In this document: positions 8,947-15,550 of the stretch, one piece after another | How the letters are laid out: each line of letters opens with the position of its first letter | Position numbering within the stretch: position 1 is the stretch's first letter | NCBI RefSeq assembly: GCF_900155605.1 | Contig: NZ_LT707420.1 | Location: 1,687,205-1,751,204 of the forward strand | Direction: 5' to 3' | Length of the DNA: 64,000 nt | From: Actinomyces marseillensis | Lineage (GTDB): Bacteria; Actinomycetota; Actinomycetes; Actinomycetales; Actinomycetaceae | Translations under genes and position numbers: made by a program | Notes under the pieces: generated by a model | What the model was told of the DNA's origin: nothing | Seen by the model: the letters and a program-made list of their open reading frames with translations, nothing else | The model's database searches: none

Positions 8947-8970
8947 CGCTGGATGATCAAACATCCAGCG
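8947..8970. other. 9-bp hairpin in the OPT-CBM spacer
   Basis: CGCTGGATG (8947-8955) and CATCCAGCG (8962-8970) form a perfect stem with a 6-base loop, 32 bases before the orphan CBM ORF. No T-tail follows. Its role is unknown; it may be a second terminator or an mRNA 5' structure. Confidence 0.4.
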
Positions 8971-9001
8971 AGTAACCTCACGGGACTCACTTGATCTGCG
9001 C

Positions 9002-9457
9002 ATGCTTCGTCATGGCGGTATCAGCATTCATATTTCCCGCACTCCTCTCCCCTGCGAAGATCACACGGGAACGTTATTTGAAGCCGAGTTGTCTCATACG
9101 TCTGGGCAGGCATCGATCTCCCCGTGCCCCGGCTGTTCAGGCGGTCGCAAAGTAGGAAATCTGGGAAGTAACGGCGCAATCACTTTTCCGAATATCTCGG
9201 TAGACCCGGCAGGAATTTACACACTGTCAGTCGGATACCTCTCTGAAGATCCTCGCTCTTTCCTGCTACGCGTCAACGACCGCAATATTGTGGTGACACC
9301 TCCACGTTCCGGAAAAGGAAATGACGGGCAGCCCAGCGGATGGGAAATCGTCCGAACCGTTGATATCCCAGTCGAACTCCACTCCGGTACAAATACTGTG
9401 ACCATCTCAGGGAACACCCCATGGGCTCCTGATATTGATCGAGTGATTGTTCGCTAG
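9002..9457 (+). CDS. Orphan carbohydrate-binding module (CBM35/CBM6-like), probable gene remnant
   Basis: A 151-residue ORF whose residues from about 25 to the end read as a galactose-binding-fold carbohydrate-binding module. The motif FEAE comes first, then CPGCSGGRKVGNLG with its paired cysteines, ITFPNISVDPAGIYTLSV, LHSGTNTVTISG, and WAPDIDRVIVR at the extreme C-terminus. This matches modules that end secreted glycosidases such as actinobacterial alpha-galactosidases (family knowledge). There is no signal peptide, no catalytic domain and no clear ribosome-binding site at ATG 9002, and the frame is closed by a stop at 8954. I infer a truncated remnant, but a small stand-alone binding protein is possible. 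It is convergent with the LacI regulator. Confidence 0.55.
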   Translation: MLRHGGISIHISRTPLPCEDHTGTLFEAELSHTSGQASISPCPGCSGGRKVGNLGSNGAITFPNISVDPAGIYTLSVGYLSEDPRSFLLRVNDRNIVVTPPRSGKGNDGQPSGWEIVRTVDIPVELHSGTNTVTISGNTPWAPDIDRVIVR

Positions 9458-9463
9458 CGACGT

Positions 9464-9513
9464 CTGTGGGTGGAGGAGAAAGCTATAGATCCCCTCCACC
9501 CACAGTCCGTTTT
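9464..9513. terminator. Shared terminator between convergent CBM ORF and lacI-type gene
   Basis: CTGTGGGTGGAGG (9464-9476) is the exact reverse complement of 9493-9505, giving a 13-bp stem with a 16-base loop. A CCGTTTT tail on the plus strand ends at 9513. It sits in the 71-base gap between two convergent stop codons. Confidence 0.75.
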
Positions 9514-9528
9514 CACGAGAAAAGATCC

Positions 9529-10539
9529 CTATTTGACCTCAGGAGGGCTCCCCAGAGTTCCTCCTTCGATGAACTCTCCGGGCACCAGGATCGAGGCGTT
9601 GCGCGCCTCGGAACCGGCTAGGCGTTCCTGCGCGAGCAGCACGGTCTGCCTCGCCAATTCACGCACCGGTTGTGCAACCGTCGTCAGGTTCAAAAGCGGT
9701 GAAGAATACGGACCGGTCGCGTCAAAGCCCGTCACCGACACCTGCTCCGGGCAGGCAATCCCTCGCGACGCCAAGTGTTCCAAAATTTTCACCGCAATCA
9801 GATCACTTCCCGCAATGACCGCAGTACACCCGGCATCAATCGCCCGGTCAATGCCATCGAAAAGATCCTCACCGTAGTCGCTGTGAGACGTCACGATATG
9901 TGGCTGGACGCCGTCGACAACCAGCTGGGTAATGAAGGTTGCGGTACGGGCATGCAGGGTGGCCGCGAGGGGGTGGCTGGTGGCGGTGACAGCAACTTTC
10001 CGGTGTCCACAGGCCACAACCTTTTGCGCCAGCATCGCTTCATACGCGGGATCGATGCGCACGGAATCAAATTCAGGGCGGGTTTCCCCACAGCCGATAG
10101 TAATGAGCGGGACGAAGGAAGCCGCATACTGCATGGCCTCGTTCGATACTCGACCAGAAGCAACGATAACCACGCCCACCCCGTGTCCCACGAGGTTGTT
10201 AATGGCCTGCATCTGGCCTTCTTCGCTGTCACCTCCGGCGGTAATCAGGAGTTCTAACCCGAGTTCGTCGGTGTGCGCTTGGAGTTCTTCTGCAACTTTC
10301 CCATAGAAGCTGTGTCCAACGTTGCGCACCAAAAGGCCGACAGTGGTGGTGCTGGAACTGGCGATCCCAGCAGCACCGAGGTTTCGCACATATCCGAGGC
10401 GGGCGGCAGCTTGGCGCACAGCGACGCGCGCTTGGGAACTGACGGCGGGATGCCCAGAAAGTGCGCGGCTGGCAGTCGCCTGCGACACTCCCGCTGCTTG
10501 AGCCACATCAATGATGCTGGCTCGTTTCTTTCTGGGCAT
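9529..10539 (-). CDS. LacI family transcriptional regulator
   Basis: A 336-residue repressor of standard length. Residues 8-27 (SIIDVAQAAGVSQATASRAL) form the LacI helix-turn-helix. The rest is the periplasmic-binding-protein-like sensor domain beginning TVGLLVRNVGHSFYGKV. It is the last gene of a minus-strand set, 45 bases after the 2'-5' RNA ligase-like gene. A LacI-type palindrome lies at the promoter of the ABC transporter at the head of that set (15219-15236), so autoregulation together with the transporter is likely by inference. The effector is unknown; most LacI regulators sense sugars or related small metabolites. Confidence 0.92.
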   Translation of the reverse strand: MPRKKRASIIDVAQAAGVSQATASRALSGHPAVSSQARVAVRQAAARLGYVRNLGAAGIASSSTTTVGLLVRNVGHSFYGKVAEELQAHTDELGLELLITAGGDSEEGQMQAINNLVGHGVGVVIVASGRVSNEAMQYAASFVPLITIGCGETRPEFDSVRIDPAYEAMLAQKVVACGHRKVAVTATSHPLAATLHARTATFITQLVVDGVQPHIVTSHSDYGEDLFDGIDRAIDAGCTAVIAGSDLIAVKILEHLASRGIACPEQVSVTGFDATGPYSSPLLNLTTVAQPVRELARQTVLLAQERLAGSEARNASILVPGEFIEGGTLGSPPEVK

Positions 10540-10584
10540 CCTCGAACATCCGTCTTTCAGTGAGTGGTGGGGTATTCCCCGACG

Positions 10585-11211
10585 TCAGCGCGGGGTTCCG
10601 ACCGTCCAAGTATATAGAGGACGGAAGGAAAAAACACCGGCCTCTTGGTCTTGATCGACTTCGACAAGAGCGATCTGTGAGCACTCCATCGAATTGTCGG
10701 TTTTCAGAGCATGAAGAGCATCAGCAAGCGCCCGATCCTCTTCGCTACTCGTCCCCGCAACCGCATAGGCCAGGCTGAAATGGGGGCCAAACGGCGGATC
10801 CGTGAGCGCCTCCCCCAGCCCCGCGTCAACGATGCTGTCACGCACAGCGTCGATCAGCCTCGTAAATGAGGGGTTCTCTGGGGAAATCACTTCCACTGCC
10901 CGTTCCTGGACGGCCGGCGGAGCGAAGGTCAACGTGAAGGGGTCGATCTGCGCCATGCGACGATCCATCTGCGAGCGCAGTTTCTCCCATTGGGCGTCAC
11001 TGATCTCGTCTCGATACAGATCGAGGCGTTGCACCGTCACGTGGATGCACTCCGGCGGTTGGATACCGATCTGTGGGAGCGCTGACAGGGGTTTTTCCGC
11101 CTCGCGCACCAAGTCCCACAGGGGGGAATCCTCGGGGGGCGCGAGGTAGAAGTGGAGCGCACCATTTCCTCGGCGCCACCGCGTATCCTCACGATCAAAA
11201 AAGCGTCGCAT
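10585..11211 (-). CDS. 2'-5' RNA ligase / cyclic phosphodiesterase superfamily (2H) protein
   Basis: A 208-residue protein with the two signature tetrapeptides of the 2H phosphoesterase superfamily: HVTV at residues 57-60 and HFSL at 144-147. These normally place two histidines in one active site for hydrolysis of 2',3'-cyclic phosphates or 2'-5' RNA linkages. The frame is open to 11256, but ATG 11211 is preferred: it follows the ATPase stop codon by 11 bases and has AAAGG about 8 bases upstream. Same strand and spacing as the ABC transporter genes suggest cotranscription. The biological substrate is unknown, and a link to transport is unproven. Confidence 0.8.
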   Translation of the reverse strand: MRRFFDREDTRWRRGNGALHFYLAPPEDSPLWDLVREAEKPLSALPQIGIQPPECIHVTVQRLDLYRDEISDAQWEKLRSQMDRRMAQIDPFTLTFAPPAVQERAVEVISPENPSFTRLIDAVRDSIVDAGLGEALTDPPFGPHFSLAYAVAGTSSEEDRALADALHALKTDNSMECSQIALVEVDQDQEAGVFSFRPLYTWTVGTPR

Positions 11212-11222
11212 GGTTCCGACCT

Positions 11223-12356
11223 TTATTTCTCCGAGGAATCCGCGGGAATCACCCACAGGGACTCGCGCGAGATCACACAGGTGACCTTCTCTCCGGCAGT
11301 ATGAAGTTCATTCATGCCGTGAGAACGGCCTTCGAGGGTGCCCGCCGCGGTGTCCAGGACGTAGGTGTTGACCGAGCCGTCGAAGGCTGCGGAGCGCACT
11401 GTGGCTTCCAGAGCCACGTCTCTGCCCTCCCCTGCCTGCTCGTTCCCGGGTGCATACAGGCCGACCTCGGTGTTTTCTGCTCGGACGACCAACTCCACGT
11501 GATCGCCAACACCAAGTCCGGGGACTCCCGCGGTGTCCAGATCACCCAGCGGGGTGGCCACCAGGTAGCGGTCGCCTCGTACCTCACTAACCGTGCCGGC
11601 CACGAAGGATGCAGTTCCCATGAAGGAGGCCACGAATCGGTTCACCGGGCGATGGTAGATTTCACGCGGCTCCCCGACCTGCTCGATGGTGCCCGCGCTC
11701 ATCACCACGATCATGTCGGACATGGTGAGAGCCTCGGACTGGTCGTGGGTCACGAAGATCGCGGTAAGTCCCAGACGCTGTTGGAGTGCACGGATTTCGC
11801 TGCGCATGCGCAGACGCAGGCGCGCATCCAGGTTCGAGAGGGGTTCGTCGAAGAGGATGATCTTCGGTTCCATGACGAGTGCTCGCGCCAGGGCAACGCG
11901 CTGCTGCTGGCCTCCGGACAGCTGATGCGGGTAGCGGTGAGCGTACTGTTCGATCCCCATGAGCGCCAGACCGTCAGCGATCCGCCGCTCACGTTCTGCG
12001 GCGGGGAGCTTCTGGTAGTTCAGACCGAATCCCACGTTGTCTTTCACCGTCAGGTGTGGGAAGAGCGCGTAGGACTGGAACACCATTGACATGGGGCGCT
12101 TTTCGGGCGGGACAGACACCAGGGACTGGCCGTCCAGGGTGATTTCGCCTTCTGTGACGTCCTCAAATCCGGCGATCATACGTAGGGTCGTGGTCTTCCC
12201 ACAGCCGGACGGTCCCAGGAAGGTCACGAATTTTCCGGCCTCAATGTCGAGGTTGATGCTGTCAACAGCTCGGTGCTGCCCCTGCTTGGCATCGTAGATT
12301 TTGGTGACAGAGCGCAGCTGGAGTGCGCCTGCCTGCGTGTGGTGTTCAGTCGTCAT
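11223..12356 (-). CDS. ABC transporter ATP-binding protein (iron(III)/polyamine type)
   Basis: A 377-residue ATPase. Walker A is GPSGCGKT (48-55), the Q-loop Gln is near 93, the signature LSGGQ is at 145-149, Walker B IILFDE is at 165-170 and the switch is VTHDQSEA. After the nucleotide-binding domain comes a TOBE-type C-terminal region of about 130 residues, usual in the FbpC/PotA group. It powers the adjacent permease: its ATG overlaps the permease stop by 4 bases (ATGA). Family resemblance points to ferric iron, polyamine or phosphonate uptake. The LacI-type operator upstream of the unit argues for caution in calling it an iron system. Confidence 0.93.
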   Translation of the reverse strand: MTTEHHTQAGALQLRSVTKIYDAKQGQHRAVDSINLDIEAGKFVTFLGPSGCGKTTTLRMIAGFEDVTEGEITLDGQSLVSVPPEKRPMSMVFQSYALFPHLTVKDNVGFGLNYQKLPAAERERRIADGLALMGIEQYAHRYPHQLSGGQQQRVALARALVMEPKIILFDEPLSNLDARLRLRMRSEIRALQQRLGLTAIFVTHDQSEALTMSDMIVVMSAGTIEQVGEPREIYHRPVNRFVASFMGTASFVAGTVSEVRGDRYLVATPLGDLDTAGVPGLGVGDHVELVVRAENTEVGLYAPGNEQAGEGRDVALEATVRSAAFDGSVNTYVLDTAAGTLEGRSHGMNELHTAGEKVTCVISRESLWVIPADSSEK

Positions 12357-14041
12357 TTCACTACCGTCCTGGTGGAGCGATTCAGTCGGTTAACAAGAAG
12401 GTTGGCGATCATCAAGATGATGAGCACGAGGCCGATGAGGAGGGTGCAGTAGGCGAAGGCGTGGCCGAAACGCCCGGCATCAACCTCGTCCAAGATCTGG
12501 GAGGTCATCACCTTGGTTTGAGGCGTCGTAATGAAGATGATCGCGGTGATCATGGTCATGGACTTGGTGATGCCGTAGGTGACGGCGGTGACGATGCCGG
12601 AACGCACCAGCGGAAGTGTCACTTTCACCAGGGTGGACACCTGGCTGGCTCCCAGGGATCGTGCGGCTTCTTCCACCTGCGGGTTGATCTGTTTGAGCGC
12701 GGAAATACAGGCCTGCTGGCCGGTGGGGATGGCGCGCGCAATGTAGACCAGGATGATGGCGATGGCACCGCTTCCGACGGCCAAGCCACCTGCCAGAGTG
12801 GGCAGAATCTGTTTGCCGAACAGCCACGTGGGGTTGGAGTAGGCCAGGGCGAATCCCAGACCGAGGACGGTGCCGGGGATTGCTATACCGAGCATGCCCC
12901 AGAAATCCAAGATTTTACCGATCTTCGGGAACTTGCGGACGACCAACCACGCAATAATCAGCGCCATGACGGCTGCGATCGGAGCGGCGACCAGGGTCAT
13001 CGACAGCGTTGTGACAATTGCGGAGGATCCCAGGCGCTGGACGTACCAGAAGTGTTCCATCGTGAAGGTGTTGTCAACGCCGAGGATCTTGACGAAGCTT
13101 CCCACGAAGAGCGTCGTGTAGACGACGATGACGAAGACGATCCACCCGTAGACGGGGATGAGCATGGGGATCTTGACGCTGGACGCAGTGACCTCTTTGA
13201 GGGAGCCCACGGGCTTACCGGTCACGGTGATCACAGACTTACGGTTCGACCAGTATTTCTGAACGGCGAACACCGTGAGTGCGGGCAGGAGCAGCACCAG
13301 GGCAACTCCTGCGGCACTTGCGATGTCACCGCTTCCTGCGACGGCAAAGTAAATCTGACTGGCCAGCACTCGGAAGTCACCGCCCAGTACCAGGGGGTTC
13401 GCCAGGTCAGCGATGCCTTCAACGAAAAGCACAAGGAAGGAGGCCAGCATTGCGGGAACCACCATGGGGATGGTGACTTTCACCAGCGTACTCAGCGGCT
13501 TCGCTCCGAGGGTGGCGGATGCTTCGAACAGGGAGTTGTCGAAGTTTTCCATCATGCCGCGGATATTAAGGTAGGCCACGGGCGCGAAGGTCAGGGAGAG
13601 CACGATGACCAGACCCACCAGGCCGTAGATGTTGTTCTCGATGCCGAAGATTCCGTAGGTGATGATGCCGCGCTTACCGAACAGGGTGATGATGGCGGTG
13701 GCCGTCGCAAAGGGCGGGGAAATCGTGGGCAGGAGGGTCACCCAGTGCAGGAGCTTCTTCCCGGGGAAGGTGAGGAACACTTGGGCGAATGCGGTGACGA
13801 ATCCGATGAAGGTTCCGACAATTCCGACGCACAGTCCCAGCACCAGGGTGTTCACCAGAGTGTCGACGTTGGCGCCGAAGGATTGGGTGATAGCTGCCAG
13901 CCCGCGTGCGGACACGCCGATACCGATGAGTTTGGCAACGGGGATTCCCAGGAGGAGAATCAGCCCGATAACGGTCACCGTGGTGATGAGGGCGACGGGG
14001 ATGTCGAGCTGCCGACCTTTACGCAGCTGTGGAATGCTCAT
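12353..14041 (-). CDS. ABC transporter permease, two fused membrane domains (FbpB/SfuB type)
   Basis: A 562-residue permease with about 12 transmembrane segments, built as two tandem binding-protein-dependent transport modules joined by a polar linker near residues 290-310. EAA-type loops are visible in both halves: EASATLGAKPLSTLVKV in the first and EEAARSLGASQVSTLVKV in the second. This layout is normal for iron(III)-type importers. The start is set at ATG 14041, preceded by GGAGA at 6 bases; the open frame continues upstream to 14077 without another good signal. It lies between the binding lipoprotein gene (with a strong hairpin in the gap) and the ATPase gene (4-base overlap). Confidence 0.92.
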   Translation of the reverse strand: MSIPQLRKGRQLDIPVALITTVTVIGLILLLGIPVAKLIGIGVSARGLAAITQSFGANVDTLVNTLVLGLCVGIVGTFIGFVTAFAQVFLTFPGKKLLHWVTLLPTISPPFATATAIITLFGKRGIITYGIFGIENNIYGLVGLVIVLSLTFAPVAYLNIRGMMENFDNSLFEASATLGAKPLSTLVKVTIPMVVPAMLASFLVLFVEGIADLANPLVLGGDFRVLASQIYFAVAGSGDIASAAGVALVLLLPALTVFAVQKYWSNRKSVITVTGKPVGSLKEVTASSVKIPMLIPVYGWIVFVIVVYTTLFVGSFVKILGVDNTFTMEHFWYVQRLGSSAIVTTLSMTLVAAPIAAVMALIIAWLVVRKFPKIGKILDFWGMLGIAIPGTVLGLGFALAYSNPTWLFGKQILPTLAGGLAVGSGAIAIILVYIARAIPTGQQACISALKQINPQVEEAARSLGASQVSTLVKVTLPLVRSGIVTAVTYGITKSMTMITAIIFITTPQTKVMTSQILDEVDAGRFGHAFAYCTLLIGLVLIILMIANLLVNRLNRSTRTVVK

Positions 14042-14076
14042 AGCTTGTCTCCAATGAAAACGGCAGGAGAGACGCA

Positions 14077-14120
14077 CACAGGGTGCGCGAGTTCCTCAGT
14101 GGGTTCTCGCGCACCCTGTG
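14077..14120 (-). terminator. 15-bp stem-loop between binding-protein and permease genes
   Basis: CACAGGGTGCGCGAG (14077-14091) pairs perfectly with 14106-14120 around a 14-base loop. It starts 3 bases beyond the lipoprotein stop codon and there is no T-run. Such a stem usually stabilises the upstream mRNA or partly terminates, giving more binding protein than permease. Confidence 0.65.
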
Positions 14121-14123
14121 GTC

Positions 14124-15176
14124 TCACTTGGCGGAGCTTGCTCCGGCGATCTGGCTTTCGAAGATGCCGATGTAGTTGGCGCGAGAGTCAGCTGCCTTGC
14201 GTACATCCCAGTCCACGTGCTTCACGACGTCCTGCTTGGGGACGTTCGGACCGACCTTGGCGTCGGGCAGGGTGGGTGCTGCGAAGGAGGGGACGTCCGC
14301 GTAGAGATCCTGAGCCTTGGTGGTCAGCAACCAGTCCATGTAGGCCTTGGCGCCTTCGGGGTTGCGTGCACCCGCGAGGACGGAGACTGCGCCCACTTCG
14401 TAGCCGGTGCCTTCCGAGGGGTAGGTGGTGACCAGGTCGGAATATCCGGCCTTGTTGGCCTTTTCGCAGTCGGAGTCGAGGGCGATGGCAACGGCCACCT
14501 CACCGCGTCCGGCCTGTTCGGTACCGGTTGCTGCGGACTTGGAGAACTGCATGATGTTGGGAACCAGTTCCTTGAAGTAGGAAACGGTCTTCTCCTGGTC
14601 GCCGTTATTCAGGGTGGCGACAGTGTACATGGCCATGTAGCCAACGCCTGCGGTGGCAGGGTGCGGCATGGCAATGCGCCCCTTGAATTCGGGCTTGAGC
14701 AGGTCCTGCCAGGAGGTGGGAGCCTGTGCGCCGATGCGTTCGAGTTCCTTCTTGTTGGAGCAGAACGCAATGGAGTCGGTATAGAAGCCGGACCAGATGC
14801 CTTCGGCGTTGTTGTACTGCGAGGGCAGTGCAGAGGCGTTCTTTGAGACGTACTTTTCGATCTTGCCCTTGTCGTTGGCGACGAGGTGGTTTTCGGCCTG
14901 GCCGCCGGACCAGACGTCGAATTCACCGGGGTTGGTTTCGAGGCGGGCGAGGACTTCGCCGGCACCCAGGCGAACGTAGGTGGCCTTCTGACCGGTTTCC
15001 CTGGTGTAGGCGGCGACGATCGCCTGGCAGAAATCTTCCTGCTGGGAGCAGGCAATGTTCAGGGTATCTGCCGAGGCGGAGCCTCCCTGGGTGCTCTGGC
15101 CTTCGGGGGCAGAGCAGGCGGCGAGAGAGAGTGCCAGGAGTGCGGCGGGGAGAGCAGCGTAGCGTGCGCGCATCAT
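14124..15176 (-). CDS. ABC transporter substrate-binding lipoprotein (iron(III)-type family)
   Basis: A 350-residue lipoprotein precursor. The signal sequence is MMRARYAALPAALLALSLAAC and the lipobox Cys is residue 21. The mature part has the layout of the Fe/thiamin/putrescine group of periplasmic binding folds, with DVWSGGQAENH near the N-lobe and MPHPATAGVGYMAMY in the middle. The characteristic FbpA double tyrosine is not obvious. The mature domain has four more cysteines (ACSQQEDFC, AFCSNK, DSDCEK), which is compatible with two disulfides outside the membrane. Tandem ATGs at 15176 and 15173 follow GGAAGG; the second has the better 7-base spacing. The substrate is unassigned: ferric iron, a phosphonate or a polyol-like compound are all possible. 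Confidence 0.88.
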   Translation of the reverse strand: MMRARYAALPAALLALSLAACSAPEGQSTQGGSASADTLNIACSQQEDFCQAIVAAYTRETGQKATYVRLGAGEVLARLETNPGEFDVWSGGQAENHLVANDKGKIEKYVSKNASALPSQYNNAEGIWSGFYTDSIAFCSNKKELERIGAQAPTSWQDLLKPEFKGRIAMPHPATAGVGYMAMYTVATLNNGDQEKTVSYFKELVPNIMQFSKSAATGTEQAGRGEVAVAIALDSDCEKANKAGYSDLVTTYPSEGTGYEVGAVSVLAGARNPEGAKAYMDWLLTTKAQDLYADVPSFAAPTLPDAKVGPNVPKQDVVKHVDWDVRKAADSRANYIGIFESQIAGASSAK

Positions 15177-15218
15177 TGAGCCTTCCGTTGCAATTGTTGT
15201 CTATGCACAGTTCGGAGT

Positions 15219-15236
15219 TGTGGATACGTTTCCACA
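15219..15236 (-). promoter_or_regulatory. LacI-type operator at the ABC operon promoter
   Basis: TGTGGATACGTTTCCACA matches its own reverse complement at 16 of 18 positions and has the central CG typical of LacI/GalR-family sites. It lies a few bases downstream of the predicted -10, over the expected transcription start, where a bound repressor would block initiation. The operon's own LacI protein (9529-10539) is the obvious candidate. Confidence 0.65.
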
Positions 15237-15242
15237 CCGGAG

Positions 15243-15272
15243 ATAGTAGAGCATTTGCGGCAATTTCGTCAA
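15243..15272 (-). promoter_or_regulatory. Sigma70-like promoter of the ABC transporter unit
   Basis: On the minus strand, TTGACG (15272-15267) and TACTAT (15248-15243) are 18 bases apart, reading toward the lipoprotein gene. The predicted start of transcription falls at the edge of the palindrome at 15219-15236. Confidence 0.6.
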
Positions 15273-15430
15273 CAAATAGGGACTTGTCCCCCAAAGCTTC
15301 ACCAAATCGTAATCTGCATACGTTTTCATACGGGAAGCAGATTTTCTGATGCCCTTTTCCGAAGAACTCTGGATTCATTCAGGACGCGTATATTCACGCG
15401 CGTATTCACACGCACATTGCGGCAACAAAA

Positions 15431-15470
15431 GAAAAGCGCCACAATCACTGAGATCCTCAGGATTGTGGCG
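15431..15470 (-). terminator. Intrinsic terminator of tRNA-Ala
   Basis: CGCCACAATC (15437-15446) pairs with 15461-15470, and CTGAG/CTCAG inside the loop extends the stem. On the minus strand the tail CTTTTC follows. It begins 8 bases past the 3' end of the tRNA. Confidence 0.85.
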
Positions 15471-15477
15471 GAGATTG

Positions 15478-15550
15478 TGGAGCTAAGGGGATTCGAACCC
15501 CTGACCTCTTCCATGCCATGGAAGCGCGCTACCAACTGCGCCATAGCCCC
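15478..15550 (-). tRNA. tRNA-Ala (anticodon GGC)
   Basis: Read on the minus strand, the acceptor GGGGCTA pairs with TAGCTCC with one G-U pair. The D-arm is GCGC-AGTTGGTA-GCGC. The anticodon arm is CTTCC-ATGGCAT-GGAAG with GGC at positions 34-36. The T-arm is AGGGG-TTCGAAT-CCCCT and the discriminator is A. The gene is 73 bases long and CCA is not encoded. It has its own promoter and terminator. Confidence 0.95.

What the first reader, a model, noticed from the sequence alone, without database searches (positions are those of the whole stretch)
15219..15272. LacI-type operator overlapping the start site of an 'iron-type' ABC operon
The TTGACG-18-TACTAT promoter is directly followed by an 18-base near-palindrome with a central CG, and the operon ends in a LacI gene. 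LacI regulators usually answer sugars, polyols or nucleosides, so the transporter may import an organic solute rather than ferric iron despite its family.
Basis: partly seen in the sequence, partly recalled or inferred. Interest (0 to 1): 0.5.

Follow-up and report, generated by a model that had tools for sequence, protein, structure and literature searches.

The report
LacI-controlled phosphodiester-type solute importer
A transporter that looks like an iron importer is, on present evidence, switched by a sugar-type LacI repressor and probably imports a phosphate-linked sugar or alcohol, not iron.

Summary
In detail: TTGACG-18-TACTAT is followed 6 bases later by TGTGGAAACGTATCCACA (8 of 9 symmetric pairs, central CG), and the five-gene operon ends in lacI. 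Neither part is rare alone. The composite occurs at one place in the window and, of 81 related loci scanned, only in 6, all orthologues with lacI in the operon. Operator letters and LacI recognition helix change together between lineages.

"Organic solute, not iron" is supported: the nearest structures bind sugar phosphate or pyridoxal phosphate. But it is not AfuA: 9 of 9 orthologues have Ser at AfuA His205, while 68 of 71 paralogues keep His. Seven of nine orthologous loci carry a 2H phosphoesterase and LacI; the other two carry a GDPD-family gene. Paralogues mostly sit beside a two-component system (60 of 71). Best explanation: a LacI-repressed importer of a phosphodiester-linked sugar or polyol that the 2H enzyme opens inside the cell. 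Regulation is well supported by comparison; the substrate is inferred. New variant of a known kind.

The parts
15315..15328 (-). second operator-like site O2 (TGAAAACGTATGCA), 94 bp upstream of O1 centre to centre
   Evidence: unchanged in the window and 4 near-identical loci
15267..15272 (-). -35 box TTGACG
15243..15248 (-). -10 box TACTAT, 18-nt spacer
15219..15236 (-). operator O1 TGTGGAAACGTATCCACA, overlapping the expected start site
   Evidence: counterparts in L054, L055, L059 and in the near-identical L052, L053, L060
14124..15176 (-). substrate-binding lipoprotein (SBP_bac_6), AfuA-like fold with a changed pocket
12353..14077 (-). two-domain ABC permease
11223..12356 (-). ABC ATPase with TOBE domain
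10585..11211 (-). 2H phosphoesterase (PF13563), HxT and HxS motifs present; the listed ORF starts at 11256, but three of four distant homologues were taken from a Met that matches codon 16
9529..10539 (-). LacI-family regulator, last gene of the operon
8957..9457 (+). short frame, convergent with lacI, homologous to the end of a longer L053 frame that carries GH97 domains; the window piece itself has no Pfam hit

Best explanation
The operon encodes an ABC importer of the AfuA/P5PA branch of the 'ferric' binding-protein family. It probably imports a phosphodiester-linked sugar or polyol (a sugar phosphodiester, a cyclic phosphate or a glycerophosphodiester). The 2H phosphoesterase of the same operon opens the phosphodiester in the cytoplasm. 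The LacI protein, last gene of the operon, represses it by binding O1 over the transcription start, perhaps with help of O2 94 bp upstream, and is released by the substrate or its cleavage product. Supported by comparison: operator position, operator/LacI covariation, pocket change, gene associations. Inferred: that this LacI binds O1 and O2, looping, the effector, the exact substrate, 2H activity.
For: The composite promoter+operator occurs at one place in the window and in 6 of 81 other loci, all orthologues with lacI in the operon. Operators: TGGAAACGTATCCA (window core), TGAAAGCGTTTCCA (L054), perfect palindrome TGCGGGAGCGCTCCCGCA (L055, L059); the first two residues of the recognition helix are Q-A, N-S and R-S respectively. 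Upstream regions of 71 paralogues: 0 match TGNAAACGTNTNCA at up to 1 mismatch. Pocket: the window and 9 of 9 orthologues have Ser at AfuA His205, Val/Leu at Thr150, Ala at Ser148, Gln at Thr60, and keep Asp206 and Glu229. Profile search of the flanks, with profiles built from the cluster genes: 2H in 7 of 9 orthologous and 0 of 71 paralogous loci; LacI 7 of 9 against 3 of 71, those three more than 6.5 kb away; GDPD 3 of 9 against 2 of 71. The sister system L142 (48%) has a LacI gene, a GDPD gene and a 2H-like gene in two frames. The 2H gene was found once in each of 4 genomes that have it in the cluster and not in the 2 genomes with the GDPD-only cluster (E up to 1e-5). The 2H model (pLDDT 76.6) matches LigT and cyclic phosphodiesterases.
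Against: No ligand, binding or expression data. 2H proteins act on many phosphodiesters, including RNA ends (recalled), so this one could be a repair enzyme; one relative, G032, has a 29%-identical 2H gene but no binding-protein match at E up to 1e-20. L056 and L058 have neither 2H nor LacI. L057 and L142 have LacI but no composite of this form. The L054 site has only 5 of 7 symmetric pairs and was caught by letters, not symmetry; the L055 operator lies 300 bp before the start codon. Of 71 paralogous upstream regions 8 also have CG-centred palindromes. A secreted GDPD could equally make a monoester that is then imported. O2 has only a weak possible counterpart in L054 (102 bp away) and no second exact copy in L055 or L059.
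Confidence: 0.6

Rival explanations
1. [quoted passage not shown]
For: Best structural matches are AfuA with G6P or F6P, VcA0625 (a G6P binder) and P5PA; Asp206 and Glu229 are kept.
Against: His205, needed for G6P binding in AfuA (PMC4546632, passages), is Ser in the window and 9 of 9 orthologues; Thr150 is Val/Leu and Ser148 is Ala. The same genome holds a paralogue with the AfuA pocket residues next to a histidine kinase and response regulator.
Confidence: 0.15
2. A phosphonate importer whose 2H enzyme opens a cyclic phosphate from phosphonate breakdown.
For: The nearest named NCBIfam models of the binding protein and permease are 2-aminoethylphosphonate transport families.
Against: Scores are far below the curated cut-offs (binding protein 140.6 against 392.75 bits). 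I recognised no phosphonate enzyme by eye among the ORFs listed beside 6 of the 9 orthologous loci. GDPD genes in 3 of 9 loci point to phosphodiesters.
Confidence: 0.08
3. A ferric iron importer, as the family label suggests.
For: Family membership: SBP_bac_6 and structural similarity to FbpA-like proteins.
Against: Ferric binders rank after the ligand-bound phosphate binders (Z 34.3 and below against 40.3-42.6), although open apo AfuA itself scores only 35.3, so part of the gap is open against closed form. The tyrosine-rich stretch of KfuA and YfuA aligns with ALDSDC, which has no tyrosine. LacI and 2H have no known iron link.
Confidence: 0.02
4. The palindrome is a coincidence or serves another regulator; the operon's LacI acts elsewhere.
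For: 18-mers of this symmetry occur 7 times in 64 kb; the genome has 9 LacI genes; 8 of 71 paralogous upstream regions have CG-centred palindromes.
Against: Same place after the promoter in three other lineages with lacI in the operon, with covarying letters; the only exact sites in the genome are the two in this promoter.
Confidence: 0.06

Closest known systems
AfuABC hexose-phosphate importer (PMC4546632) and P5PA (PMC8427247)
   Same: Binding-protein fold and pocket position; AfuA too was first labelled as iron transport
   Different: Residues at AfuA His205, Thr150, Ser148 and Gly185 replaced; LacI and a 2H phosphoesterase gene in the operon
Agrocinopine acc system of Agrobacterium (AccA and its ABC transporter, phosphodiesterase AccF, repressor AccR; PMC4526662, passages)
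   Same: Logic: ABC import of a sugar phosphodiester, cleavage inside the cell, repressor that answers the cleavage product
   Different: AccR is a DeoR-family protein per that paper; here 2H and LacI; no sequence comparison was made
Xanthosan system of Xanthomonas (PMC12807533, abstract, two sections, passages)
   Same: A 2H phosphoesterase (XanP) beside an uptake gene, with a GDPD-derived synthetase in the cluster; here GDPD-family genes lie in 3 of 9 orthologous loci
   Different: XanT is a predicted TonB-dependent outer-membrane transporter and the regulator a putative ROK protein; no sequence comparison was made; the window genome has no GDPD gene near the operon
Local LacI-family regulons (PMC4052901, passages)
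   Same: Even palindrome with central CG, in the usual distance range before the start codon, regulator gene probably autoregulated
   Different: Ordinary in kind; effector unknown

Membership tests
LacI-family operator | Even palindrome of 16-22 bp with central CG | tested here: met
   18-mer, 8/9 pairs, CG centre; definition from PMC4052901 passages
LacI-family operator | Conserved with orthologous regulators (footprint) | tested here: met
   Composite found in L054, L055, L059 and the near-identical L052, L053, L060; not in L057 (LacI 30% identical, convergent) or L142
LacI-family operator | Binding by the regulator | not testable with these tools
   needs purified protein
AfuA sugar-phosphate binding protein | His205-Asp206-Glu229 sugar-binding motif | tested here: not met
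   Ser-Asp-Glu in the window and 9 of 9 orthologues
AfuA sugar-phosphate binding protein | Overall fold | tested here: met
   Z 42.6, rmsd 1.6 over 307 residues to 4r73_B; predicted model, pLDDT 88.6
Ferric-binding protein (FbpA) | Tyrosine pair that binds iron (recalled) | tested here: not met
   aligned stretch has no tyrosine (sequence alignment to KfuA and YfuA)
2-aminoethylphosphonate binding protein (TIGR03261) | NCBIfam curated cut-off | tested here: not met
   140.6 against 392.75 bits
2H phosphoesterase | Two HxT/S motifs | tested here: met
   HVT and HFS; both histidines invariant in the 6 sequences aligned, one of them near-identical to the window's
2H phosphoesterase | Phosphodiesterase activity | not testable with these tools
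   needs enzyme assay
Xanthosan-type nutrition system | GDPD-derived synthetase in the same cluster | tested here: not met
   the window genome has 3 GDPD genes, none near the operon; a GDPD-family gene of unknown activity lies in the clusters of L056, L057, L058

The most novel reading that the evidence does not exclude
An actinobacterial counterpart of the xanthosan and agrocinopine nutrition systems: GDPD-family enzymes that look secreted, encoded in some clusters (Corynebacterium, Rothia, Curtobacterium records and the sister genome G463), make or release a special sugar phosphodiester outside the cell. A dedicated ABC importer with a rebuilt AfuA-type pocket takes it up and a 2H phosphoesterase opens it. 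The Actinomyces-type lineage of the window keeps only uptake and cleavage and so would feed on what a host or neighbours produce.
Probability: 0.2. Interest if true: 0.8.

Novelty: new variant of a known kind. Interest (0 to 1): 0.5.

Why it matters
Another 'iron' transporter group is probably misnamed, and here a defined candidate substrate class can be tested. The pairing of a rebuilt sugar-phosphate pocket with a 2H phosphoesterase and, in relatives, a GDPD-family gene gives a direct test of whether sugar phosphodiesters are nutrients outside plant pathogens.

Tried and rejected
A 15-base pattern in a wrong register gave 23 hits against 21 for the reversed control and was dropped for the 14-base pattern. 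Curated family names: no NCBIfam model reached its cut-off among the rows shown for the binding protein, permease, ATPase and LacI (permease and ATPase lists were cut at 25), and the 2H protein had no hit. phmmer of the 2H protein against the PDB found nothing at E up to 1. tblastn against plasmids gave only matches under 60% identity: 619 records for the binding protein, 15 for the 2H protein, all Streptomyces. Sampling for more orthologues at E up to 1e-100: 1 of 396 genomes of the phylum (the window's own), 3 of 198, 1 of 401 and 2 of 395 in the families of three carriers; all but G463 were already known, so the system looks sparse. Paper searches: AfuABC with LacI (2 listed, none opened), 2H phosphoesterase with ABC transporter and operon (3 listed, 1 opened), glycerophosphodiester with binding protein (7 listed, none opened), LacI with Actinomyces and operator (none). 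In these listings I saw no title or abstract that describes this operon; that is not a proof of absence. Looping by O1 and O2 is only a suggestion: within the near-identical group the lack of variable columns in 32 site positions has a probability of about 0.02.

Full report
What is there. On the minus strand a promoter TTGACG-18-TACTAT (15272-15243) is followed 6 nt later by TGTGGAAACGTATCCACA (15236-15219), 8 of 9 symmetric pairs around a central CG. Five genes follow: a binding lipoprotein, a two-domain permease, an ATPase, a 2H phosphoesterase and a LacI regulator. The listed 2H frame overlaps the ATPase gene, but its homologues suggest a start at codon 16, at 11211, just after the ATPase stop.

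Is it more than chance? The promoter alone is not (2 found, shuffles mean 1.8), nor the palindrome alone (7 such 18-mers in 64 kb). The composite is. I scanned both strands of 81 other loci for TTGAC[AG], 16-18 nt, TANNNT, then within 10 nt either a CG-centred 18-mer of at least 8/9 pairs or a 14-mer within one mismatch of TGNAAACGTNTNCA. One search took 75 loci (2.34 Mb of strand-bases: L054, L055, L057, L059 and 71 paralogous loci); one search took the other 6 (L052, L053, L056, L058, L060, L142). Six loci have it, each upstream of the orthologous binding-protein gene: L052, L053 and L060, near-identical copies of this operon, and the more distant L054 Actinomyces massiliensis, L055 and L059 (Propionibacteriaceae genomes). 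L056, L057, L058, L142 and the 71 paralogous loci have none. The 14-mer pattern was written from O1 and O2 before the DNA upstream of L054 had been shown; the L054 site passes by letters only, with 5 of 7 symmetric pairs. In L055 the operator lies 300 bp before the start codon, in the others 40-60 bp. Of the 71 paralogous upstream regions 0 match the 14-mer and 8 have a CG-centred palindrome, none behind a promoter of this form.

The operator follows its regulator. LacI identity to the window protein is 56% (L054), 42% (L055, L059) and 30% (L057). The first two residues of the recognition helix are Q-A in the window, N-S in L054 and R-S in L055 and L059, where the half-site changes from GGAAACG to GGGAGCG. 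That these positions set specificity is recalled from LacI work. The passages I read of PMC4052901 say that 1251 of 1303 LacI regulators have even palindromes, 1173 with a central CG, that over 75% of sites lie 30-140 bp before the start codon, and that carbohydrates are the effectors of 103 of 107 groups with assigned effectors.

A second site. TGAAAACGTATGCA at 15328-15315 lies 94 bp from O1 centre to centre. In the whole genome the shared pattern matches exactly only at these two places, so the regulator looks local. In the window and 4 near-identical loci neither site has a variable position (probability about 0.02 given 33 variable positions in 300), which is weak evidence. L054 has a possible second site 102 bp from its operator.

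What the transporter is. By sequence and fold the binding protein is nearest to AfuA, VcA0625 and P5PA, which bind phosphorylated organic molecules (E 2e-40 to 1e-38; Z 40.3-42.6 for ligand-bound forms against 34.3 and lower for ferric binders, though open apo AfuA also scores only 35.3; model pLDDT 88.6). In the alignment with ferric KfuA and YfuA, their tyrosine-rich stretch faces ALDSDC. But it does not meet the AfuA definition. In AfuA, H205A, D206A and E229A each abolish G6P binding, and Ser37 and Thr150 bind the phosphate (PMC4546632 passages). At 205, 206, 229, 37 and 150 the window and 9 of 9 orthologues have S, D, E, A (S in L058) and V or L. Of 71 paralogous loci 68 keep His205, and all 71 keep Asp206, Glu229 and Thr150. 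The tree puts the window and its 9 orthologues in one clade (support 0.983), with L142 as sister (support 1.0); L142 has A at 205, V at 148 and A at 150. The same genome carries a paralogue with the AfuA motif beside a histidine kinase and a response regulator.

What travels with it. Of the 71 paralogous loci 60 have both a histidine-kinase and a response-regulator hit beside the transporter, some of the rest being cut short; of 9 orthologous loci none has either. A profile search of the flanks, with profiles built from the cluster genes themselves, found 2H in 7 of 9 orthologous loci and 0 of 71; LacI in 7 of 9 and 3 of 71, all three more than 6.5 kb away; GDPD in 3 of 9 (L056, L057, L058) and 2 of 71 (L094, L115). 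L052, L053 and L060 are near-identical to the window, so the 9 loci stand for about 7 lineages. L057 has both 2H and GDPD. The sister locus L142 has LacI, a GDPD gene and a 2H-like gene in two frames: one frame matches PF13563 below its cut-off (19.6 against 27 bits), the other has no Pfam hit but an HLT motif. Signal peptides on the GDPD proteins were judged by eye. So each of the 9 orthologous clusters carries at least one gene of a phosphodiester-cleaving type. 2H was found once in each of 4 genomes that have it in the cluster and in neither of the 2 GDPD-only genomes. Against this, one relative (G032) has a 29%-identical 2H gene without the transporter.

How it probably works. Without substrate, LacI sits on O1 over the start site and shuts the operon, itself included. 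A phosphodiester solute enters through the low-level transporter, is opened by the 2H enzyme, and it or its product releases LacI. Loss of phosphate-holding hydroxyls in the pocket would suit a phosphodiester better than a phosphate monoester; that is inference. The passages of PMC4526662 show the same logic for agrocinopine: ABC import, AccF cleavage, and the product as effector of AccR. PMC12807533 (abstract, two sections and passages) shows a 2H enzyme, XanP, cleaving a cyclic sugar phosphodiester made by a GDPD-derived enzyme, and reports relatives of that enzyme in Corynebacterium and Trueperella pyogenes. Whether the GDPD proteins of these clusters are among them was not tested.

Limits. 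No binding, expression or ligand data. The substrate class rests on gene company and pocket changes.

Noticed in passing
window 9258-15550; L040, L053, L039, L041: The operon block lies at different chromosomal places in near-identical form: beside tRNA-Ala(GGC) in the window, L039 and L041, beside tRNA-Ala(TGC) in L053 and beside tmRNA in L040. The promoter-side junction is at the 3' end of the RNA gene (CTCCACA) each time; I recognised no integrase in the block.
   Followed up: partly
window 8957-9457; L053:13720-14820: Next to lacI, convergent, lies what looks like the tail of a GH97-family glycosidase gene; L053 holds a longer piece with GH97 domains.
   Followed up: partly
L042:7960-12706: A more distant relative of the transporter is followed by an inositol-monophosphatase family gene (PF00459), another hint of phosphorylated substrates in this family.
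   Followed up: no
L034, L035; L074, L075, L082: A third pocket type among the paralogues has Gln at AfuA His205 and Gly at Ser37, which suggests a further change of substrate.
   Followed up: no
L142:5598-6428 (-): A 2H-like gene just after the ATPase lies in two reading frames, one with an HVT and one with an HLT motif.
   Followed up: partly
L094, L115: Two Bowdeniella nasicola loci have a GDPD gene 2.4 kb upstream of an AfuA-type transporter.
   Followed up: no
G032:C4:187554-188183: A relative without the transporter has a 29%-identical 2H gene; its neighbours were not looked at.
   Followed up: no
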